Source: a virus. From it: 22,259 nucleotides of DNA. Every line of letters begins with the position of its first letter. The stretch's first letter is position 1. The notes under the pieces are model-generated. The model saw only the letters and a list, made by a program, of their open reading frames with translations. It was not told where the DNA came from and searched no databases. A program made the translations under genes and the position numbers. The stretch covers positions 1-22,259 of IMG/VR virus record IMGVR_UViG_3300017989_000476; one strand, given 5' to 3'. Positions 10,967 to 19,204 of this stretch are shown piece after piece.

Positions 10967-12037
10967 CTAGACGGCCAGCGGTGCGTCGTAGCCGCTCGGG
11001 ATAGCGTAGGAGCCGTTGCCGATGCGGTAGACCAGCGCGCCGAGGCGATTGGCGACGCCAAAGCCGCAGAATCGCAGGTAACGCATGCCCTTGTGGTTGC
11101 CGTCGATATCGATCTCTTCGGTGAAGAATCCCTGCAGCGTCGCCGAGTCGTACTCGCGCATCCAAAGCACGGGTGCCGTGCCGCGGGCGTGGCCGAACAG
11201 GTAGGAGTCGGGGAGGTTTTTCCACTCCACGATCCAGCACTTGTCGACCTTGCCCAGCACCTCGTGGCCGAAGCTCGCGCCAAAGGCGGTCGCCACTTGG
11301 TCGGTGTTTACACCATAGCGGAGGTCAGGGTCACCGACCTCGGTGAACCCGGTGAGGTTCTGGATCGAGCTCTTCAGATTGGTGGGCGTGTAAACCACAA
11401 TGTCGGAGCCCTCGTTGACCGGGTGCTCCATCAACTCGTCGTAGATGTCGTCGAACGGGTTGTTGGAGTCGTCGATCGAGCTGGCCTGCGCCAGGTAGTG
11501 GTCATCGTCGGCCGCGGAGCCCGACGTTTTGAGGAACTCAGTGCCATCACCGTTGGCCAGCGGCTCGACGGTGAGCGAGCCATGCAAATCGTCGCTGTAC
11601 GTCCAGGAGACGTTGTCAAAGAGGGCCGCCAGCATGTGCCGCCTCAACCAATCCTTGTCGCGCTGGATGGAGTTGAGCGTCCGGCGGTTGGCTTCCTCGA
11701 CGGTCATCAGGTTGGCGCTGACCCGGTTGGCGCCAAACGCGGTGCCCCCCCCCTGGATCGGGAAAGCCACGTCGTAGTAGCCCTCTTCTCGCACAGGGAG
11801 CGGGTTGCCGTCCTCGTTCAACGGCTGCAGGGTGCCGCTGCCAGGCTGCATGTAGCGGGTCTTGTATTCGGTTGTGCGTCGCACGAGATCGGCCATCATC
11901 GAATTGACCTGGCGGTTGTACTCGCCGACGCTCGTTCGGATAGCATCAAAGACGCGGTCTACACCGACGTCCGAGATGCGTTCGTTCATCAGGCCTGCGA
12001 GCTCTACAAAGCCGTAGGCCAACGTGTTGTTTGCCAT
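10967..12037 (-). CDS. Major capsid protein
   Basis: A 356-aa protein following scaffold and decoration genes, the standard place and size for an HK97-fold major capsid protein. GAGGTAA about nine bases before the ATG gives a strong initiation signal. The N-terminal ~60 residues are helical (MANNTLAYGFVELAGLMNERISDVGV), followed by a long region with FPIQGGGTAFGANRVSANLM (about 93-112), and the C-terminal part includes GFTEVGDPDLRYGVNTDQVATAFGASF and RYLRFCGFGVANRLGALVYRIGNGSYAIPSG. No recognisable protease site or N-terminal cleavage domain is visible, which fits the separate scaffold gene. The HK97 fold is inferred from position and size, not seen directly. Confidence 0.88.
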   Translation of the reverse strand: MANNTLAYGFVELAGLMNERISDVGVDRVFDAIRTSVGEYNRQVNSMMADLVRRTTEYKTRYMQPGSGTLQPLNEDGNPLPVREEGYYDVAFPIQGGGTAFGANRVSANLMTVEEANRRTLNSIQRDKDWLRRHMLAALFDNVSWTYSDDLHGSLTVEPLANGDGTEFLKTSGSAADDDHYLAQASSIDDSNNPFDDIYDELMEHPVNEGSDIVVYTPTNLKSSIQNLTGFTEVGDPDLRYGVNTDQVATAFGASFGHEVLGKVDKCWIVEWKNLPDSYLFGHARGTAPVLWMREYDSATLQGFFTEEIDIDGNHKGMRYLRFCGFGVANRLGALVYRIGNGSYAIPSGYDAPLAV

Positions 12038-12077: not shown

Positions 12078-12482
12078 CTACAGGTCCACGCGGAGCACTT
12101 TGTCCGCGGTCGTGTGCGCGAACACGGGCTCGACGGTGCCGACGATCTTCTCTACACTGCCAGCGGCGTCGGCCAGGCGCCCGTCGGTGTCTGACAGGTA
12201 CACATCGGCGTCATAGTCGAGGTCGCCCAGGATATTGCCCAGGTCGACCAGGCCCTTGCGGATCACCTCCAGCGATTCGCCAGCGGCCGCGCTCTGCAGG
12301 GCAATGCCTGCGCTGCGAGCCTCAGCGCTCGTGGTGGCATTCGACGGCGTGACCTTGCCGTTCGACGTGTCCCGCCGTACCACCTGGCCAGCGGTGATCG
12401 ACTCAGCGGCCGGGCCGCTGAACTGCTCGAGGATCTGTACAGGGGCGACATCCGTCGCCGTCACTGCGCTCAAGTTGGTCAT
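12078..12482 (-). CDS. Capsid decoration / cement protein (DUF2190-like)
   Basis: A 134-aa protein between scaffold and major capsid genes, initiated with CGGAG upstream of ATG at 12482. Its beta-rich pattern follows DUF2190-type capsid cement proteins: AESITAGQVVRRDTSNGKV, then ARSAGIALQSAAAGESLEVIRKG, then DYDADVYLSDTDGRLADA, and a closing KVLRVDL. It probably binds at capsid surface axes and stabilises the shell. It is a likely abundant protein. The family call is from the pattern AG..V..D..GK, A..AGIA...A.AGE..EV...G and VYLSD.DG.L. Confidence 0.7.
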   Translation of the reverse strand: MTNLSAVTATDVAPVQILEQFSGPAAESITAGQVVRRDTSNGKVTPSNATTSAEARSAGIALQSAAAGESLEVIRKGLVDLGNILGDLDYDADVYLSDTDGRLADAAGSVEKIVGTVEPVFAHTTADKVLRVDL

Positions 12483-12513: not shown

Positions 12514-13173
12514 CTACAGGCCTTGCACCTGGTAGCTACGCCTGCGCTTTTCATCGTCACTCAGGTTGTGGCTCACGCCGCGTCGCGGGTTGTTCGTGGG
12601 TGATCCCGTCGACGGTAGCGCGAGCTTGTCAGCGTTCTCGGTCAGGTATTCGAGCTGCTCCACAGGGTCCAGCTTGTCCAGTAGCGGGGTCAGATGCTCA
12701 GGAACCCCCTCGCGGGCTTTGTCGACGTAGCTCTTCAGCGCCTTGGCGTAGCGATCGCGCTCGGCCGTCAGCGTCTCGATCTGCGGCTCGAATTCGCTCA
12801 GCTTGGCCTCTGCATCCTCAGCCTTCTTTTGCGCCTTCTCGGCCAGCTCCTTGAATTCGCCGGCCTCCTCAAGGCGCTTCGCCTCAGCTTTGTCGGCCTC
12901 CCGCTCCTTGGCCTTGCGCTCCTTTTCCAATTCCTTGCGCCTCTCGCGCTCAGACTGGAGAGCCGATGTCAAGCCACCGGTATGCTCTGCGTAGGCGGCA
13001 CGCACTGCCTCGGATTGCTCTGCAAGCCAGGTCTCAAATTCGATGTCTTCTGGCGTCTCGCCATCGCCATCGTCGTTGGTATCGTCGTCGGCGGGCTCAG
13101 GATCTCCCTGGCCCTCGCCGGCGCCAGCATCGTCTGGCGCAAATCGGAACAGCTTTTGTGTCAACTCATCCAT
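12514..13173 (-). CDS. Scaffold protein
   Basis: A 219-aa highly charged protein with GGAGGA before ATG at 13173. Residues ~15-50 are very acidic (DDAGAGEGQGDPEPADDDTN), ~65-150 form a long charged coiled coil with QSERERRKELEKERKAKE followed by AEAKRLEEAGEFKELAEKAQ, and the C-terminus is basic (SDDEKRRRSYQVQGL), typical of capsid-binding ends in phage scaffolds. The place immediately upstream of decoration and capsid genes supports the call. No protease domain is visible. Synthesis probably starts downstream of the intrinsic terminator at 13220-13253, which suggests its level is set by read-through or by another signal. Confidence 0.85.
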   Translation of the reverse strand: MDELTQKLFRFAPDDAGAGEGQGDPEPADDDTNDDGDGETPEDIEFETWLAEQSEAVRAAYAEHTGGLTSALQSERERRKELEKERKAKEREADKAEAKRLEEAGEFKELAEKAQKKAEDAEAKLSEFEPQIETLTAERDRYAKALKSYVDKAREGVPEHLTPLLDKLDPVEQLEYLTENADKLALPSTGSPTNNPRRGVSHNLSDDEKRRRSYQVQGL

Positions 13174-13219: not shown

Positions 13220-13253
13220 AAAAAAAGAAAAAGGCCCGCTCTCACAGCGGGCC
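13220..13253 (-). terminator. Strong intrinsic terminator upstream of the scaffold gene
   Basis: Minus strand: GGCCCGCT, 5-base loop GTGAG, AGCGGGCC, then TTTTTCTTTTTTT. The 8-bp GC stem followed by a T-rich tract is a textbook rho-independent terminator for transcripts coming from the terminase side. Only 46 bases separate it from the scaffold ATG, which leaves little room for a full promoter, so read-through or antitermination is likely needed for the capsid genes. Confidence 0.85.
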
Positions 13254-13608: not shown

Positions 13609-13683
13609 TTAGTCTCGTGTCATCCATAGCAATACAGCGACCGCCAGTGCATAGCCCAGCAAGAGCCAAGCTATCCAGGGCAC
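13609..13683 (-). CDS. Possible 24-aa single-pass membrane peptide
   Basis: GTG at 13683 (GGGGG a few bases upstream) opens a 24-codon frame, MPWIAWLLLGYALAVAVLLW then MTRD, ending in TAA at 13609. The start overlaps the end of the second GT4 gene, and the next ATG comes two bases after the TAA. The peptide is almost all hydrophobic with a short charged C-terminus, i.e. one transmembrane helix. Tight packing at both ends supports real translation; a chance frame of this size is possible. It could be a small inner-membrane accessory for the glycan cassette or for lysis. No family is recognised. Confidence 0.4.
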   Translation of the reverse strand: MPWIAWLLLGYALAVAVLLWMTRD

Positions 13684-14534
13684 GCCGTGCCCCCATCCAT
13701 CAATCGTCGCTCAGCCTCTGCCCAGAACTCGGCCATGACGTGCCGCCAGGTGCATGTGGACAGAATCGTCGCCGGCCTGGTTGCCCCCCGCGCTTTCAAC
13801 AACTGCGACAGGAGGTATGTCAGTTGTGGTTGCACCGGCACACGTGGGTCTATCCAATGAGCCCGCAACGGTGCAAACCAGCGACGATAATCGGCCATGT
13901 CAAGGCAAGTAAACTCCGTGGCACATGCCGCCGCCTCCAGTGCTGGCAACTCAAAGCCCTCAACGCGGCGGGTCGCCAGTGCCAGGTGGCTTTCGTTGTA
14001 CAACCGGCACATTGTGGCGTCCGGCACGTTCTCAAAGTGGCAGTAGTGCTCGCCCCAGTCAAAGTCTTGCCCTACGTGGCAAAAATCGACGCCCAGCGCC
14101 ACACAGGCCTCGTAGGCCTCACGGAGGCACTCTGTCTCAGCGACGTATCCGGTGGCCATGATGCCGTACCGCTTCTCGACGTCCATCGGGTAGAACACGT
14201 CCATGTCGACGCCCAGCGGTGTCTGATAGAGTCTGTCCGTCGGCAAATCATAGTAGCTGGCCACCATATCGACATCGGCCCAGACCGCCGGCCAGTCAGC
14301 GACGTCCGCGGTTTTATGGCAATACTGCCACATGATCACTCGCTGATCGTCGTGTTCGCGCTGGAGGTCCTCGATCTCACCGCTGCCCACGACGTGGGCG
14401 ATGAGCCAGTCGGCGTCCTCTCGCCGCGGCGTGAACTCTATCCACTCAGGGGCGTGCTTGCTGGATTCGCTGACGACGCGGCGCACAGCACGTGATAAAT
14501 GCGCCTTGCAGGCGTTCCAAACGGTGACGGTCAC
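13671..14534 (-). CDS. GT4-like glycosyltransferase, 287 aa
   Basis: GTG at 14534 overlaps the TGA of the kinase-methyltransferase gene (GTGA) with GGAGGAAT upstream; the frame extends back to 14963 but that part only shadows the methyltransferase. The 287-aa protein has a GT-B layout: the N-terminal domain ends near PLGVDMDVFYPMD (about 106-118), a junction motif of GT4 enzymes, and the C-terminal domain has VEGFELPALEAAACATEFTC with a complete E-X7-E motif (E192 and E200). It is shorter than usual GT4 enzymes (about 350-400 aa), with a small N-terminal domain. It probably transfers a sugar from a nucleotide donor to the glycan made by this cassette. It is co-transcribed with the other four cassette genes. 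Confidence 0.75.
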   Translation of the reverse strand: MTVTVWNACKAHLSRAVRRVVSESSKHAPEWIEFTPRREDADWLIAHVVGSGEIEDLQREHDDQRVIMWQYCHKTADVADWPAVWADVDMVASYYDLPTDRLYQTPLGVDMDVFYPMDVEKRYGIMATGYVAETECLREAYEACVALGVDFCHVGQDFDWGEHYCHFENVPDATMCRLYNESHLALATRRVEGFELPALEAAACATEFTCLDMADYRRWFAPLRAHWIDPRVPVQPQLTYLLSQLLKARGATRPATILSTCTWRHVMAEFWAEAERRLMDGGTACPG

Positions 14535-15667
14535 GATTCCTCCCTCTGTAGCACATAGATCGGTCGCTGGCGCTCGGAGGTCCCCAGGCGATGGATCGCC
14601 CAGCCGGGGAATGTCTCCGCCAGATAGCGGCGCCAGCCCATGTCGTCTCGCTTGGATGCGTATTCGCCGATGCGGAGTGCCTCGAAATAGAACGTCTGCG
14701 TCGCCTGACGGATCATGGCCATCAATTCCTCGCGCCGGGCGACGTGCATCCACACGCTGAGGCAGAACACGACGTCGTATGCCGCCTGCCCCGTGTGTTC
14801 CTGGAGCCAGTCGAGGGTGAGGTGGTTCAGGTCGCAGACGTAGAACTCGGCCGGGCACTCGTACAGCGCCGCGACCTCGCGAGCGCAGCGGATGATGTTT
14901 TGCCCGCGATCGAGGCCTACCGCGCGACGTGCGCCATCTCGCACCGATTGCATCGTGAACCAACCTAGGTTACAGCCCAGATCGAGCACCGTCTTGCCGG
15001 CGACGCCTGGGTGCATGATCTGCCAACGGTGCCGACAGTTGCGCTCCCCGGCGAGATGGTACCCGCCCGGCCAGTCCATCTGCTGGTAGCTCATTGCCAC
15101 GCCGGTGGCGGGCGCCTTGCGAATCTGGGCGTCCAGGGCGCGGAGTTGCGTCGTCGAGGGCCGCTGATCCATCACGAGGTCCCTTTCTATGCCATAGATC
15201 GAGTGCATCCAGCACAGGACGGCGTCCAGGCAGAGATAGGAACGCAGGACGTCCGGCCCCTTGCCCCACAAGTCGACCAGCGCGGGGCGCTCGCATGGTC
15301 TGGCGTGCTGAAAGTCGATCAGCACCGGATGGCCGTCGTAGTCGAGCATGATATTCTCAATTTTGACGTCGCGATGGGCGTAGCCGCGCGCATGGATGGC
15401 CCGCAGCGTCGCCAACAGCTCGACGGAGATCTGGTGGGCTTGACCGGCGGTCAGCATCGGACAGTCAGCCAGGCAGCGCCCGTATTCGGGCATCTCATAC
15501 CAATCGGCGCCTTGGGCCAGGATGGGCACCACGCCGTCGATGCCAGCCAGGTCCATCAGGGCCGTCACAGCGTTGCGCGTCGGACGCTCTTTGCGTATGA
15601 CGCCGTCTCGCACGCGGTACAGACGAGATCCGCTGGCGTTGTAGCGTGCGCCGATGCGCTCTCTCAC
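14531..15667 (-). CDS. Protein-kinase-like domain fused to SAM-dependent methyltransferase
   Basis: GTG at 15667 overlaps the TGA of the acyltransferase gene (GTGA); GAGG and GGTG lie upstream. A longer frame to 15724 runs into that gene and is not preferred. The 378-aa protein has two domains. Residues ~14-200 are kinase-like: a candidate Lys at 26, AHRDVKIENIML with HRD at 98-100 and Asn105, and LIDFQHARP with D118-F119-Q120 (DFQ instead of DFG). Residues ~210-378 are a class I methyltransferase: TVLDLGCNLGWFTMQ (226-240), acidic Asp253 in VGLDRG, CDL at 278-280, and DVVFCLSVWMHV (298-309). The same pair of activities, in reverse order, forms WbdD, which phosphorylates then methylates the end of the E. 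coli O9a glycan. By analogy it may cap a glycan; that is inference. The kinase substrate may also be a lipid or protein. Confidence 0.85.
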   Translation of the reverse strand: MRERIGARYNASGSRLYRVRDGVIRKERPTRNAVTALMDLAGIDGVVPILAQGADWYEMPEYGRCLADCPMLTAGQAHQISVELLATLRAIHARGYAHRDVKIENIMLDYDGHPVLIDFQHARPCERPALVDLWGKGPDVLRSYLCLDAVLCWMHSIYGIERDLVMDQRPSTTQLRALDAQIRKAPATGVAMSYQQMDWPGGYHLAGERNCRHRWQIMHPGVAGKTVLDLGCNLGWFTMQSVRDGARRAVGLDRGQNIIRCAREVAALYECPAEFYVCDLNHLTLDWLQEHTGQAAYDVVFCLSVWMHVARREELMAMIRQATQTFYFEALRIGEYASKRDDMGWRRYLAETFPGWAIHRLGTSERQRPIYVLQREES

Positions 15668-16173
15668 GCGTTCACCGCCCTCTCGCCGATCTTGCGCGCC
15701 GGAACGCCGGCCCAGATTTCCCATTCAGGAATGTCCCGCGTTGCCACCGCGCCCGCGCCCAGGACTGCTCCCTCATTCAATGTCACACCGGGCAACACAA
15801 TGGCCCCTGCGCCCAGAAAGGCGTAACGGGCGATGTATACCCGAGATCGATTCACGACCTGCCTCTCTTGTGGCGATGCCGCCGACATACTCAACCCCGA
15901 TGGCCTATTCGATCCGGCGATGATCTTGGCTCCGGAGGCCAGCGCAGCATAGTCGCCAATCTCTACCAAACCACCGCCAATGTTGACGTGGCAGAACGAG
16001 GCGATGTGAACGTATCGGCCCACCGTCACGCCCAAGCCGCCCTCGATCTTGACGAATGAATCCACTCTGCAATAGTCGTCTAGCTCGATTTGCCCAGGGC
16101 GCAGGATGATCGTCGGCTCATAGATCTCGACGCCGACGCCACACCATGGCCTTACGCCGTGTTCGGATGCCAT
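15664..16173 (-). CDS. Left-handed beta-helix (hexapeptide) acyltransferase
   Basis: ATG at 16173 (GAGGGTGAGGGT upstream) gives 169 aa; the frame upstream to 16230 overlaps the GT-A gene and is unsupported. Residues ~14-160 show hexapeptide-repeat periodicity of the left-handed beta-helix, with VGRYVHIASFCHVNIGGG (51-68), EIGDYAALASGAKIIAGS (71-88) and FLGAGAIVLPGVTLNEGAVL (119-138), then GAGAVATRDIPEW and AGVPARKIG, the terminal signature of O-acetyltransferases of the WbbJ, VatB and galactoside acetyltransferase type. A loop at about 89-110 interrupts the coils as in sugar acetyltransferases. It probably O- or N-acylates a sugar of the glycan made by the neighbouring glycosyltransferases. 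Active as a trimer in the family. Confidence 0.85.
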   Translation of the reverse strand: MASEHGVRPWCGVGVEIYEPTIILRPGQIELDDYCRVDSFVKIEGGLGVTVGRYVHIASFCHVNIGGGLVEIGDYAALASGAKIIAGSNRPSGLSMSAASPQERQVVNRSRVYIARYAFLGAGAIVLPGVTLNEGAVLGAGAVATRDIPEWEIWAGVPARKIGERAVNA

Positions 16174-16889
16174 ACCCTCACCCTCGGATCGCACCACACG
16201 CGATACCCAGCTCGCCTCGCCTGCTCGCACCAGCCGACGATGGCCCGATCGCTGGCGTGTACACCGGCTCTAGCTGCCCGCGCGGTCATGAGCAGGCACG
16301 ACCCTGCGCTGTACAACGGAAACGGCTCACTCGGCGGCGGCTGCTCTCTGTCAAACGTGGCCCCATCCGGTAGTTGCCGAAACGACCAGGTGTCATAGAG
16401 CACAGAGCCCTTGCGCTTGTTGGCTTCGAGCCAGGCGTGGTCGGTGTTGTGTGTCGGCGGGTGCTCGACGGCTACCCATGGTGCAACGATGTCCACACGA
16501 GTTGCGATCAACTTGCTCAGCAACTGAGGGCCCCAGATCAAGTCGCTCTCAATCCACAGGATGTACTGCGCCCAACCGTCGAGCAGCGCCGACCACACCG
16601 CCCTGGAGCCCACCGTCGAGCAATCGATCATGCGGTCAGGGTCGGTGACGGAGCCCTTGGGTGTATGCCCCAGGTGGTGCTGCATCACCACGATGTCGCG
16701 CCCCGAGCCCCGCTGCCACTTGCAGAGCTCGTCATAGGTATGATCCCTGCTATCGCCCTCGATCAAGTACAGACGCATGGCGTCATCTGGCCAGTCCAGG
16801 GCGTCGATCTGGCGCACAAAGCGCCCCAAGTCCCCGCGCCGAACGCTGTTGCAGAACATGCTACAGATGGCCACCCGCTGCTCAGCCAT
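16152..16889 (-). CDS. Glycosyltransferase, GT-A-like with ESD motif
   Basis: ATG at 16889 with GAGGAG upstream gives 245 aa; the frame upstream to 16946 overlaps the GT4 gene. The N-terminus (MAEQRVAICSMFCNSVRRGD) has the VAI....N beta-strand start of GT-A enzymes, followed by MRLYLIEGDSRDHTYDEL and then YILWIESDLIWGPQLLSKLI. The ESD at about 114-116 sits where the metal-binding DXD lies. The C-terminal half has SFRQLPDGATFD and PLYSAGSCLLMTARAARAG, and the end has RVRVWHPNTA with a His that often ligands metal in this fold. It has an 8-base overlap with the upstream GT4 gene and 22 bases with the acyltransferase. Likely a glycan-building transferase in the cytoplasm; the sugar is unknown. 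Confidence 0.75.
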   Translation of the reverse strand: MAEQRVAICSMFCNSVRRGDLGRFVRQIDALDWPDDAMRLYLIEGDSRDHTYDELCKWQRGSGRDIVVMQHHLGHTPKGSVTDPDRMIDCSTVGSRAVWSALLDGWAQYILWIESDLIWGPQLLSKLIATRVDIVAPWVAVEHPPTHNTDHAWLEANKRKGSVLYDTWSFRQLPDGATFDREQPPPSEPFPLYSAGSCLLMTARAARAGVHASDRAIVGWCEQARRAGYRVWCDPRVRVWHPNTA

Positions 16890-18123
16890 GCCACTCCTCG
16901 CCCCCGAGGTCTTTGTGCCGCAGCATAGATTCGCGGAATAGTGCATCGAACCGCTCGGGGACCTGCTGTGTCTCCCATGTATGTTCTTTAGCCCAGCGCA
17001 TGCAGCGCCAGCGCATCAGGTCATAGCCCTTACCGCAATACATTGTATTGAGCCCGTCGACCACCGCCTCGATATCGACCATGGCGTACTGGGTCGTGTT
17101 GCGGCACGCTGTGTAAGTGTACGTGTACGACAACAGGATCCCGGCTTGGCCGACGTAGGACATTGCCGCATAGTCAGTGATCAGCGTCGGCGTGCCGGCG
17201 GCCTGGGCCTCGTGTGTGCTCAGCTCCCAACCGCCACCGGCCGTGGTCGAGAGGTGGCAATCGGCGGCGTTGTAGATCTGATTGAGCTTTTCGATCGGAA
17301 CGCCCAGGCGCTGCGGTCCCAGGCCAGAGTGCATCACCTGGTCGCCAATGCCGTACCGCTCGATCAGCGCTGGGATGTCGTAGCCGCCGTCGATGACTAA
17401 CGGGGTGTGGAGCCACAGCCTGGCCTCAGGCTTGTCTTGAGCGAACATGGCAAAGGCCTCGATCGTCGATGGCCACTGTTTGCGCTCCTGATTCTTATCG
17501 ATGCGAAGCACGATGAACCAATCATCGGGGATCTCTGTGCCGCTCTCCTTGTTCAGCGCTGCCCTGGCCCTGCGTTTCGCCGTCTTTTTGTCGTCACCCA
17601 TCGGCCAGAACTCGTCGGAATCGACGCCGTGGCCGATGACCTCCAAACGATCGCCAAGCTGACGATCGAGATCGCGGATCACCTCCTTGGCGTACTCGGT
17701 GTACACGACGGGGATCGACGCCTGTCGTATGCCGTCAAGGTAGCTGGCCGGGAACGGGTCGCCGTCTACCGGCGAATAGGTCACCACCGGCACCGTGGCC
17801 AGCGCCTCGGCGTTGTCCCGATAGCTGTAAAACTCCTCGATGATGGGCAGATCGTTGAGGATCCACACCACGTCGGGCTGGAGCCGGCCGATCAGATCTT
17901 TGACTCTGCCCACGCCGTACACGTCGCGGGCCGGCGAGTACTGTGGCAGGTAGTACTGATATGGGTACCGATCCAGGTCGGGCATATCGCCGTGATAGTT
18001 GATAGCGCACAGGTGCACATCGTACTCGCCACTGTCTACCAGCGGATAGAGCACATGATCCACAACGCGACCAAAGCCGGTCGGGATTTGCGGCGCGTCG
18101 GCAAAGGCTAATAAACGGATCAC
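16882..18123 (-). CDS. GT4 family glycosyltransferase, 413 aa
   Basis: GTG at 18123 follows a strong AGGAGGA. The protein is GT-B fold: N-terminal MIRLLAFADAPQIPTGFGRV with a Rossmann strand and glycine loop, PVVTYSPVDGDPFP (about 111-125), VIGHGVDSDEFWPM (junction), then WFIVLRIDKNQERKQWPSTI, where R.....RK matches the donor-binding R and K of GT4, and finally GGGWELSTHEAQAAGTPTLI. The last matches the E-X7-E region, with E305 kept but the first Glu replaced by Gly297. Full family length. It leads the cassette of five glycan genes, next to the minor head gene; typical phage transferases of this type modify virion or surface sugars. The acceptor is unknown. Confidence 0.85.
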   Translation of the reverse strand: MIRLLAFADAPQIPTGFGRVVDHVLYPLVDSGEYDVHLCAINYHGDMPDLDRYPYQYYLPQYSPARDVYGVGRVKDLIGRLQPDVVWILNDLPIIEEFYSYRDNAEALATVPVVTYSPVDGDPFPASYLDGIRQASIPVVYTEYAKEVIRDLDRQLGDRLEVIGHGVDSDEFWPMGDDKKTAKRRARAALNKESGTEIPDDWFIVLRIDKNQERKQWPSTIEAFAMFAQDKPEARLWLHTPLVIDGGYDIPALIERYGIGDQVMHSGLGPQRLGVPIEKLNQIYNAADCHLSTTAGGGWELSTHEAQAAGTPTLITDYAAMSYVGQAGILLSYTYTYTACRNTTQYAMVDIEAVVDGLNTMYCGKGYDLMRWRCMRWAKEHTWETQQVPERFDALFRESMLRHKDLGGEEWHG

Positions 18124-18200
18124 CGTTTCCTCCTCTTCACTGGTCCCCGATGCCGATAGGTGCCCGCTGGCACCCTGCGTCGACTGCGGCGCTTGGTCAC
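18120..18200 (-). CDS. Possible 26-aa arginine-rich peptide
   Basis: A GTG at 18200 overlaps the TGA of the minor head gene (GTGA), and the frame ends with TGA at 18120-18122, overlapping the GTG of the GT4 gene. The 26 residues MTKRRSRRRVPAGTYRHRGP then VKRRKR contain 13 Lys or Arg and one His. The overlap at both ends is the pattern of a translated gene in this operon. Part of the basic bias comes from the AGGAGGA ribosome site of the next gene, so translation is not proven. A basic peptide could bind nucleic acid. No family is recognised. Confidence 0.4.
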   Translation of the reverse strand: MTKRRSRRRVPAGTYRHRGPVKRRKR

Positions 18201-19204
18201 GCTGCCATCCTCTCCATCAGCACCTCTCGCGGCGTCAATACTGTCTCTGTCGTGCAAAGACCGTTCGGATGATCCAGCGGTGTTCGGCCAGGCAGGTATA
18301 CGCCGCGTGGATCGATGCCGTATCGCTGTAGCCTGGCCAGCATCCGTTGCTCTGCCCGCTTGCCCGCCGGCGGTTGCCCGTCGAGGATCACCGTGCCCGG
18401 CATGCGTTCGGCCCAGTCGTCACAGATGTCGCGCGCGGTGCGCCCGTCGGTGGCCGCCAGCATCCTCTGGGCGTGTTGTGGACTCAGCACCCAGCGACTG
18501 CCCAGGGCGATGCCTGCGTCGGCCAGCTCGGCGTCGGCCTGATCCCGTGCCTCGCCATACGCCTGATTGATCTCTGTCCTGGCCAGGCGGTACGCGTTGT
18601 ACGAGACATTGCGCGGCTGGTTGGAATAGATGGCGCTAGGTACATCGCCCTTGGGCAACACACGGTCAGGGAGCAGCCACCGCTCGGCGCGTTTGGCGAT
18701 CTTGGCCGCCGACCAGCCCTGGTTGACGCCGTTTAGCACGTCCTGCTGCAACCATTGTCGGCTGGCATAGTCCAACCGCCAGATCCTATCGCTCAAATTG
18801 AGCCCCTTGATGGTGCGTTCGGTCATGATGTCGACCACGCGGCGCGGAATGTCGTCGAACCCCGGCAACCCCGGGAACGCCACACCCTGGACATACACAT
18901 TGAGCGCCCGTTGGCTGCCCGTTGCAGCAACGGTGGCCGCCTGACTGATTTGGCTGAGCAGCTGCCCCTCATAGCTGGTGCGAAACTGGCCCAGCGCCAC
19001 GCCGACTTCGCGCTCGATGATGCCCATGTCTTGCAGCGTCAACTCGCCGCCCTCGCCGGCCAACCTCGTGATCGTGCCCGAGATCCTGTCGGCGACATCC
19101 CGCAACAGATCGACGATGGCGCCGCGCAGCCGACGTTCGTCGCGTTCGTATAGCTTGCGCGCCTCGGCCAGCGCCTTGTGATACAGGTCCTCGGGACTCG
19201 GCAT
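18197..19204 (-). CDS. Minor head protein (Mu F-like)
   Basis: A 335-aa protein starting with ATG at 19204, overlapping the portal stop (TGATG), directly after the portal gene as for Mu gpF and SPP1 gp7-type minor head proteins. The N-terminal ~170 residues are helical (HKALAEARKLYERDERRLRG). From ~200 the Mu F region is visible: NVSYNAYRLARTEINQAYGE (about 209-228), GSRWVLSPQHAQR (about 247-259), ICDDWAERMPG and then DHPNGLCTTETVLTPREVLM near 312-331, the (H)PN.(R/L)C pattern of the family's C-terminal end. It is probably ejected with or bound at the portal vertex in procapsid assembly. The GTGA overlap at its end leads into the glycan cassette. Confidence 0.85.
   Translation of the reverse strand: MPSPEDLYHKALAEARKLYERDERRLRGAIVDLLRDVADRISGTITRLAGEGGELTLQDMGIIEREVGVALGQFRTSYEGQLLSQISQAATVAATGSQRALNVYVQGVAFPGLPGFDDIPRRVVDIMTERTIKGLNLSDRIWRLDYASRQWLQQDVLNGVNQGWSAAKIAKRAERWLLPDRVLPKGDVPSAIYSNQPRNVSYNAYRLARTEINQAYGEARDQADAELADAGIALGSRWVLSPQHAQRMLAATDGRTARDICDDWAERMPGTVILDGQPPAGKRAEQRMLARLQRYGIDPRGVYLPGRTPLDHPNGLCTTETVLTPREVLMERMAA

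What the first reader, a model, noticed from the sequence alone, without database searches (positions are those of the whole stretch)
13671..18123. Five-gene glycan cassette (two GT4, GT-A-like, acyltransferase, kinase-methyltransferase) in a head-gene cluster
Seen: five tightly overlapping minus-strand genes between the Mu F-like minor head gene and the scaffold gene, a position normally free of accessory genes. Known: GT4 and GT-A enzymes, hexapeptide acyltransferases, kinase-like and class I methyltransferase domains act on glycans elsewhere. Inferred: together they build, acylate and cap a glycan on a virion protein or the host surface. Phage-encoded virion glycosylation is known for some actinobacteriophages; a complete set with a capping-type enzyme seems unusual.
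Basis: partly seen in the sequence, partly recalled or inferred. Interest (0 to 1): 0.82.

Follow-up and report, generated by a model that had tools for sequence, protein, structure and literature searches.

The report
Sugar-modifying gene cassette beside phage-head genes
A bacterial virus carries five overlapping genes that probably build and trim a short sugar chain, wedged among its shell-building genes; similar sets are already known in other phages, but this one adds an acyl-transfer enzyme and an unusual kinase-methyltransferase fusion.

Summary
The five minus-strand genes are real, intact and tightly coupled, at about 18123-13671: GT4, a probable GT-A glycosyltransferase, a hexapeptide acyltransferase, a kinase+methyltransferase fusion, and a second GT4. 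They lie between a Mu F-like gene and the scaffold/cement/capsid genes of a 22 kb IMG/VR phage contig; MCP relatives in three Chloroflexota MAGs hint at a Chloroflexota host. Cluster O mycobacteriophages (Corndog, Firecracker) carry a methyltransferase and glycosyltransferases between portal and protease, and S-CBS4 carries GT4-GT2-MT in an equivalent place. Of 20 relatives with a homologous capsid protein and the interval on the contig, 4 hold sugar-modifying, acyl-transferring or carbohydrate-binding genes there; in one of them (L103) the GT4 is 54% identical. In the other 16 I identified none, though not every ORF was scanned; in one of these (L106) a GT cassette follows the capsid gene instead. 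Best reading: a late-expressed cassette, in a variable accessory slot, that glycosylates a virion (head) protein. New here, in this sample, are the acyltransferase and the kinase-MT, whose domain order is the reverse of WbdD's. Target and chemistry are untested; both structure predictions failed.

The parts
16882..18123 (-). GT4-a: GT-B family glycosyltransferase, 413 aa, GTG start with AGGAGG upstream
   Evidence: phrog_2170 2.3e-31; Pfam GT4 domains sub-threshold; 54% identical to the GT4 in the same slot of L103
16152..16889 (-). Probable GT-A glycosyltransferase, 245 aa, with an ESD (DxD-like) motif
   Evidence: phrog_1574 3.6e-10 (unknown function), Anp1 0.0025; a phrog_1574 member is annotated glycosyltransferase; hhalign to phage GT2 not significant; fold inconclusive
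15664..16173 (-). Left-handed beta-helix (hexapeptide) acyltransferase, 169 aa
   Evidence: Hexapep 5.3e-10; PDB 3vbp 4.2e-19 over residues 32-184 of the long ORF
14531..15667 (-). Kinase (N-terminal) + class I methyltransferase (C-terminal) fusion, 378 aa; HRD...N, DF and VLDLGCNLG motifs intact
   Evidence: Pkinase 2e-9, Methyltransf_25 1.3e-8; motifs; no relative in phages, IMG/VR or genome scans
13671..14534 (-). GT4-b: shorter GT-B glycosyltransferase, 287 aa, with EGFELPALE; GTG start overlaps the previous stop by 4 nt
   Evidence: PF13524 4.3e-5, phrog_2170 5.4e-9 and phrog_4356 4.5e-6; motif
13233..13253 (-). Intrinsic terminator-like hairpin, stem of 8 pairs followed by TTTTTCTTTT, between cassette and scaffold
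   Evidence: rediscovered, shuffle frequency 0.025
18197..19204 (-). Mu F-like head morphogenesis protein, left border of the slot
   Evidence: phrog_1657 3.5e-31
12514..13173 (-). Scaffold-like acidic coiled-coil protein, right border of the slot
   Evidence: position and composition; homologues just before cement and capsid genes in relatives
12078..12482 (-). Cement/decoration protein, a possible glycan acceptor
   Evidence: Phage_cement_2 1.8e-5
10967..12037 (-). Major capsid protein, a possible glycan acceptor
   Evidence: phrog_3990 2e-20

Best explanation
The five genes are one co-translated accessory cassette in a variable slot between the packaging/portal genes and the scaffold/capsid genes. 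Shown: the gene layout, the families of at least four of the five proteins, the presence of other carbohydrate-related genes in the same slot of some relatives. Inferred: late in infection the three glycosyltransferases, using host nucleotide sugars in the cytoplasm, build a short glycan on a head protein (capsid, cement or neighbouring surface protein); the hexapeptide enzyme acylates one sugar; the kinase-methyltransferase phosphorylates and/or methylates the outer sugar, ending or masking the chain. The likely benefit is altered surface recognition or stability of the particle.
For: Coupled genes with Shine-Dalgarno-like motifs before each; family hits; same-slot relative L103 holding GT4 (54% identity), methyltransferase, phosphodiesterase and a laminin-G/lectin-like gene; L098 with a GT-A-like gene, L099 with CBM5/12 and virion-structural hits, L122 with a GNAT acetyltransferase in the slot; L106 (capsid 52% identical in best segment) with GT4s after the capsid gene. 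Precedents: Corndog/Firecracker MT+GTs between portal and protease, enzymes seen in infected cells but not in virions, capsid peptides under-represented and modification proposed (PMC4351075 passages); mycobacteriophage capsid and tail-tube glycans as cited in PMC12619734 and PMC11256854 passages.
Against: No direct evidence of any glycan, acceptor or expression. Cluster O enzymes gave no blastp hit to these at E 0.01. Related GT4s also sit outside head regions (L125 upstream of terminase near groEL; L128 near a DNA polymerase; S-EIV1 beside a primase). A terminator-like hairpin separates the cassette from scaffold and capsid, so co-transcription with the capsid gene is not assured. In 16 of 20 relatives with the interval on the contig no such gene was identified.
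Confidence: 0.58

Rival explanations
1. The cassette modifies the host cell-surface polysaccharide late in infection (superinfection exclusion or release), not the virion.
For: Hexapeptide relatives in phages include the K1 capsule O-acetyltransferase neuO of CUS-3; Gratiaviridae portal-MCP kinase+GT genes were proposed to modify host capsule (PMC8008677 passages); an exported protein family sits after the capsid gene; WbdD acts on O antigen (PMC3482155 passages).
Against: Position inside the head-gene block, no flippase or membrane-anchored GtrB-like partner recognised in the scanned window proteins; the slot in L103 and L099 also carries lectin-like or virion-structural genes.
Confidence: 0.25
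2. The enzymes hypermodify phage DNA with sugars, as phage DNA glycosyltransferases do.
For: Phage GTs that glycosylate DNA are known (cited in PMC12619734 passages); the replication part of the genome is not on this contig, so base-modifying partners cannot be excluded.
Against: No DNA-base modification gene was recognised among the proteins scanned; acyltransferase and kinase-MT are not expected partners; location is with head genes.
Confidence: 0.07
3. A loose set of acquired genes with no joint pathway, accumulated at a permissive site between two operons.
For: Slot contents differ widely between relatives, most hold no such gene that I identified; terminator-like hairpin at the edge.
Against: 4-22 nt overlaps, ribosome-binding-like motifs before each gene, intact catalytic motifs in the kinase-MT and GT4-b, and one shared theme.
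Confidence: 0.1

Closest known systems
Cluster O mycobacteriophages (Corndog, Firecracker, Dylan, JangDynasty) portal-protease interval
   Same: Methyltransferase plus glycosyltransferases in tight series between portal and capsid maturation protease
   Different: Different enzyme families (TylF O-MT, GT2-like, GT25-like), no blastp hit at E 0.01, no acyltransferase or kinase in the Pfam scan of Firecracker gp33-36
Synechococcus phage S-CBS4, Pontimonas phage phiPsal1, Microcystis phage Mae-JY09 GT4 cassettes
   Same: GT4 homologues of GT4-a (about 25-30% identity) next to GT2 and MT (S-CBS4, phiPsal1) or an epimerase (Mae-JY09), inside head genes
   Different: No kinase-MT or hexapeptide gene recognised among the cassette proteins scanned; in phiPsal1 and Mae-JY09 the cassette follows the capsid gene
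IMG/VR contig 3300014656_001424 (L103/L123)
   Same: TerL, portal, Mu F, scaffold, cement, capsid and P12 homologues in the same order; GT4 54% identical in the same slot
   Different: Slot otherwise holds methyltransferase, type I phosphodiesterase, laminin-G-like and unknown genes
WbdD of E. coli O9a
   Same: Kinase and class I methyltransferase in one chain; among the best-scoring PDB chains for the whole protein
   Different: WbdD is MT-kinase-coiled coil, 708 aa (PMC3482155); here kinase-MT, 378 aa; with the kinase half alone WbdD is not among the 60 listed PDB matches

Membership tests
Glycan cassette in the portal-to-capsid interval (Corndog type) | Two or more glycosyltransferases plus a methyltransferase in series between portal and protease/scaffold | tested here: met
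   the third GT (GT-A) is probable only
Glycan cassette in the portal-to-capsid interval (Corndog type) | Homologous enzymes | tested here: not met
   blastp at E 0.01, no hit to Firecracker gp33-gp36; so it is filed as the same kind of arrangement, not as a homologous family
Glycan cassette in the portal-to-capsid interval (Corndog type) | Glycan on a virion protein | not testable with these tools
   needs mass spectrometry of virions
WbdD chain terminators | Kinase and methyltransferase in one chain | tested here: met
WbdD chain terminators | N-terminal methyltransferase, then kinase, then coiled coil | tested here: not met
   order is kinase then methyltransferase, ending at residue 378; reference order from PMC3482155
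WbdD chain terminators | Phosphorylates terminal sugar and methylates the phosphate | not testable with these tools
   needs an enzyme assay
Phage GT4 family phrog_2170 | Full-length profile match | tested here: met
   residues 7-385 of 413, 2.3e-31
Phage GT4 family phrog_2170 | GT4 EX7E motif (recalled as typical of CAZy GT4, not a stated requirement of the PHROG) | tested here: not met
   GT4-a has GGGWELSTHE, first Glu absent, as in L103 and S-EIV1; GT4-b has it
Hexapeptide (left-handed beta-helix) acyltransferases | Hexapeptide repeats above the curated cut-off | tested here: met
   PF00132 39 bits, cut-off 27
GT-A glycosyltransferases | GT-A fold or curated profile match | tested here: inconclusive
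   Anp1 below cut-off; model pLDDT 43.5 with no Foldseek match at E 0.001 or better and methyltransferases ranked first; hhalign E 0.06

The most novel reading that the evidence does not exclude
The phage makes an acylated, phosphate- or methylphosphate-capped glycan on its capsid, using a compact kinase-methyltransferase of reversed domain order as a chain terminator: a WbdD-like length-control and capping step moved from bacterial surface polysaccharide to virion decoration.
Probability: 0.15. Interest if true: 0.72.

Novelty: new variant of a known kind. Interest (0 to 1): 0.38.

Why it matters
Phage virion glycosylation is best documented in mycobacteriophages (as cited). A cassette of the same layout in a probable Chloroflexota phage, plus a slot in related phages that sometimes holds sugar-modifying enzymes and sometimes carbohydrate-binding genes, suggests that remodelling of the head surface with or for carbohydrates recurs across distant phages. 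The kinase-methyltransferase would be a testable candidate for a cap on virion glycans.

Tried and rejected
Single-protein scans with the kinase-MT (IMG/VR and genomes), Mu F and portal proteins found no relatives. TerL relatives proved a poor guide: by profile search their portal, Mu F and capsid genes were mostly unrelated to the window's. The first GT4 alignment was too diverse to scan with. AlphaFold on the kinase-MT alone gave pLDDT 37.9 and on the GT-A alignment 43.5; Foldseek on the latter gave nothing better than E 0.025, mostly methyltransferases among the listed rows, and is not used. Profile-profile comparison of the GT-A family with phage GT2s was not significant, though it aligned the DxD-like stretch and the C-terminal motif; a methyltransferase control scored lower. 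A terminator before scaffold as a general feature of the slot: not found by the same scan in 17 relatives. A sample of 350 genomes drawn from the phylum of G003 held only matches of the kinase stretch to the kinase-MT at E 1e-8 or better, in 6 of 350. Rfam gathering search of the window: no match.

Full report
Setting. The window is a whole IMG/VR record of 22,259 bases with the head genes on the minus strand: TerL 22005-20656, SPP1-like portal 20652-19204, Mu F-like 19204-18197, the cassette, a small ORF 13554-13333, a scaffold-like gene 13173-12514, cement protein 12482-12078, capsid 12037-10967, an exported-looking protein 10908-9754, then connector/tail-sized genes and a 1330-aa ORF 6716-2724, by size and position the tape measure.

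Five ORFs fill 18123-13671. Picking starts with Shine-Dalgarno-like motifs gives overlaps of 8, 22, 4 and 4 nt. Families: GT4-a phrog_2170 2.3e-31; hexapeptide acyltransferase Pfam 5e-10 and PDB 3vbp 4e-19; kinase 2e-9 plus class I methyltransferase 1.5e-8 in one protein; GT4-b phrog_2170 5e-9. The GT-A call is weaker: phrog_1574 (unknown function) and sub-threshold Anp1; another phrog_1574 member is annotated glycosyltransferase and the slot gene of L098 also matches phrog_12406 'glycosyltransferase'. My attempts to confirm the fold were inconclusive. Motifs: HRDVKIEN, DF and VLDLGCNLG are intact in the kinase-MT; GT4-b has EGFELPALE; GT4-a lacks the first Glu of the recalled EX7E motif, as do L103 and S-EIV1.

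The position is not unusual. Cluster O mycobacteriophages carry an O-methyltransferase, two glycosyltransferases and an N-acetylglucosaminyltransferase between portal and protease; the paper reports the proteins in infected cells but not in virions and suggests capsid modification (PMC4351075, passages only). The Firecracker and Dylan records show the order. JangDynasty is the same (PMC5968724, passage). Gratiaviridae carry a HipA-like kinase, ATPase and GT between portal and MCP, read there as host-capsule modification (PMC8008677, passages). S-CBS4 has GT4, GT2 and MT after a phrog_24776 gene that follows the portal; phiPsal1 and Mae-JY09 have GT4 cassettes after the capsid gene. Mycobacteriophage capsid glycans are cited in PMC11256854 and PMC12619734 (passages); the primary paper was not held.

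Relatives with the same capsid. Capsid scans gave 27 loci, L096-L122. Seven lack the interval between the portal/Mu F side and scaffold and were dropped: L096, L097, L111, L116, L117, L120, L121. In the other 20 (some Mu F and scaffold genes there are presumed from position), 4 hold sugar-modifying, acyl-transferring or carbohydrate-binding genes in the interval: L103 (GT4, methyltransferase, phosphodiesterase, laminin-G-like), L098 (GT-A-like plus an unknown), L099 (CBM5/12 and virion-structural matches), L122 (GNAT acetyltransferase among unknown genes). In the remaining 16 I identified none, but not every ORF was scanned. One of those, L106, has GT4 homologues after its capsid gene. L146, a further capsid relative fetched later, has a near-empty interval. 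So the site is a facultative accessory slot with a carbohydrate theme in some members. Among 88 TerL-related loci (89 counting the window), GT4-a homologues appeared in 3: L049, L070, L089; many of those contigs are short.

What is different here. In this sample I found no other head-region cassette with a kinase-MT fusion or a hexapeptide enzyme; not all neighbours were scanned. The kinase-MT had no tblastn hit in 50,697 phage records at E 1e-3, and pattern scans of IMG/VR and of genomes, which reach only close relatives, confirmed none. WbdD is the nearest two-domain PDB entry for the whole protein, but its order is MT-kinase-coiled coil (PMC3482155 passages) and the kinase half alone matches other protein kinases better. 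The LbH gene has distant phage relatives including CUS-3 neuO, a host-capsule acetyltransferase, which keeps the host-surface rival alive. A full-text search for 'phage-encoded' with 'kinase-methyltransferase' returned 0 papers; this covers only the held open-licence library.

Expression. A terminator-like hairpin at 13253-13233 lies between cassette and scaffold; the same scan found none in 17 relatives. The cassette may therefore end a packaging-side transcript here; promoter scans found nothing above chance.

Host. Three of the four capsid relatives in the genome collection come from MAGs named Ardenticatenia, Promineifilum and Chloroflexi 54-19, one from Hydrogenedentota; that these three belong to Chloroflexota is recalled. 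In a sample of 350 genomes from the phylum of G003 (the Promineifilum MAG), 3 had a match, G003 itself included. Binning of phage contigs is error-prone, so a Chloroflexota host is only likely.

Judgement. A glycan-modifying cassette: very likely. Virion target: favoured by position and precedent, not shown. Capping by kinase-MT: an analogy. The kind is known; the enzyme set is a new variant.

Noticed in passing
window 10908-9754, minus strand; L096, L098, L099, L103, L104, L108, L114: A protein family encoded just after the capsid gene has a strongly hydrophobic stretch near the N-terminus in all 8 members examined, with lipobox-like motifs in L104 and L096 (motif names recalled). An exported or membrane-anchored protein in a head-gene block is unexpected.
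   Followed up: partly
L099:7298-8763, L103:7500-8240, L084:7340-8245: Carbohydrate-binding or lectin-like genes (CBM5/12, laminin-G, a weak arabinofuranosidase-type match) lie among the portal/Mu F/scaffold genes of relatives.
   Followed up: partly
L104, L107, L114, L122 and L003 (S-CBS4): A phrog_24776 protein of unknown function follows the portal where other relatives have a Mu F-like gene.
   Followed up: no
window 18123-16882; L103:4026-5273; L004:7986-9254: GT4-a and two relatives share GGGWEL in place of the usual GEGxGL, losing the first Glu of the recalled EX7E motif.
   Followed up: no
L103:5934-6911: A type I phosphodiesterase / nucleotide pyrophosphatase (PF01663, 6e-28) sits in the same slot of the closest relative.
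   Followed up: no
L125:1174-3925, L126:2893-4479: Other GT4-bearing phages carry a groEL-like gene (both) and an aminotransferase (L125) near the GT4.
   Followed up: no
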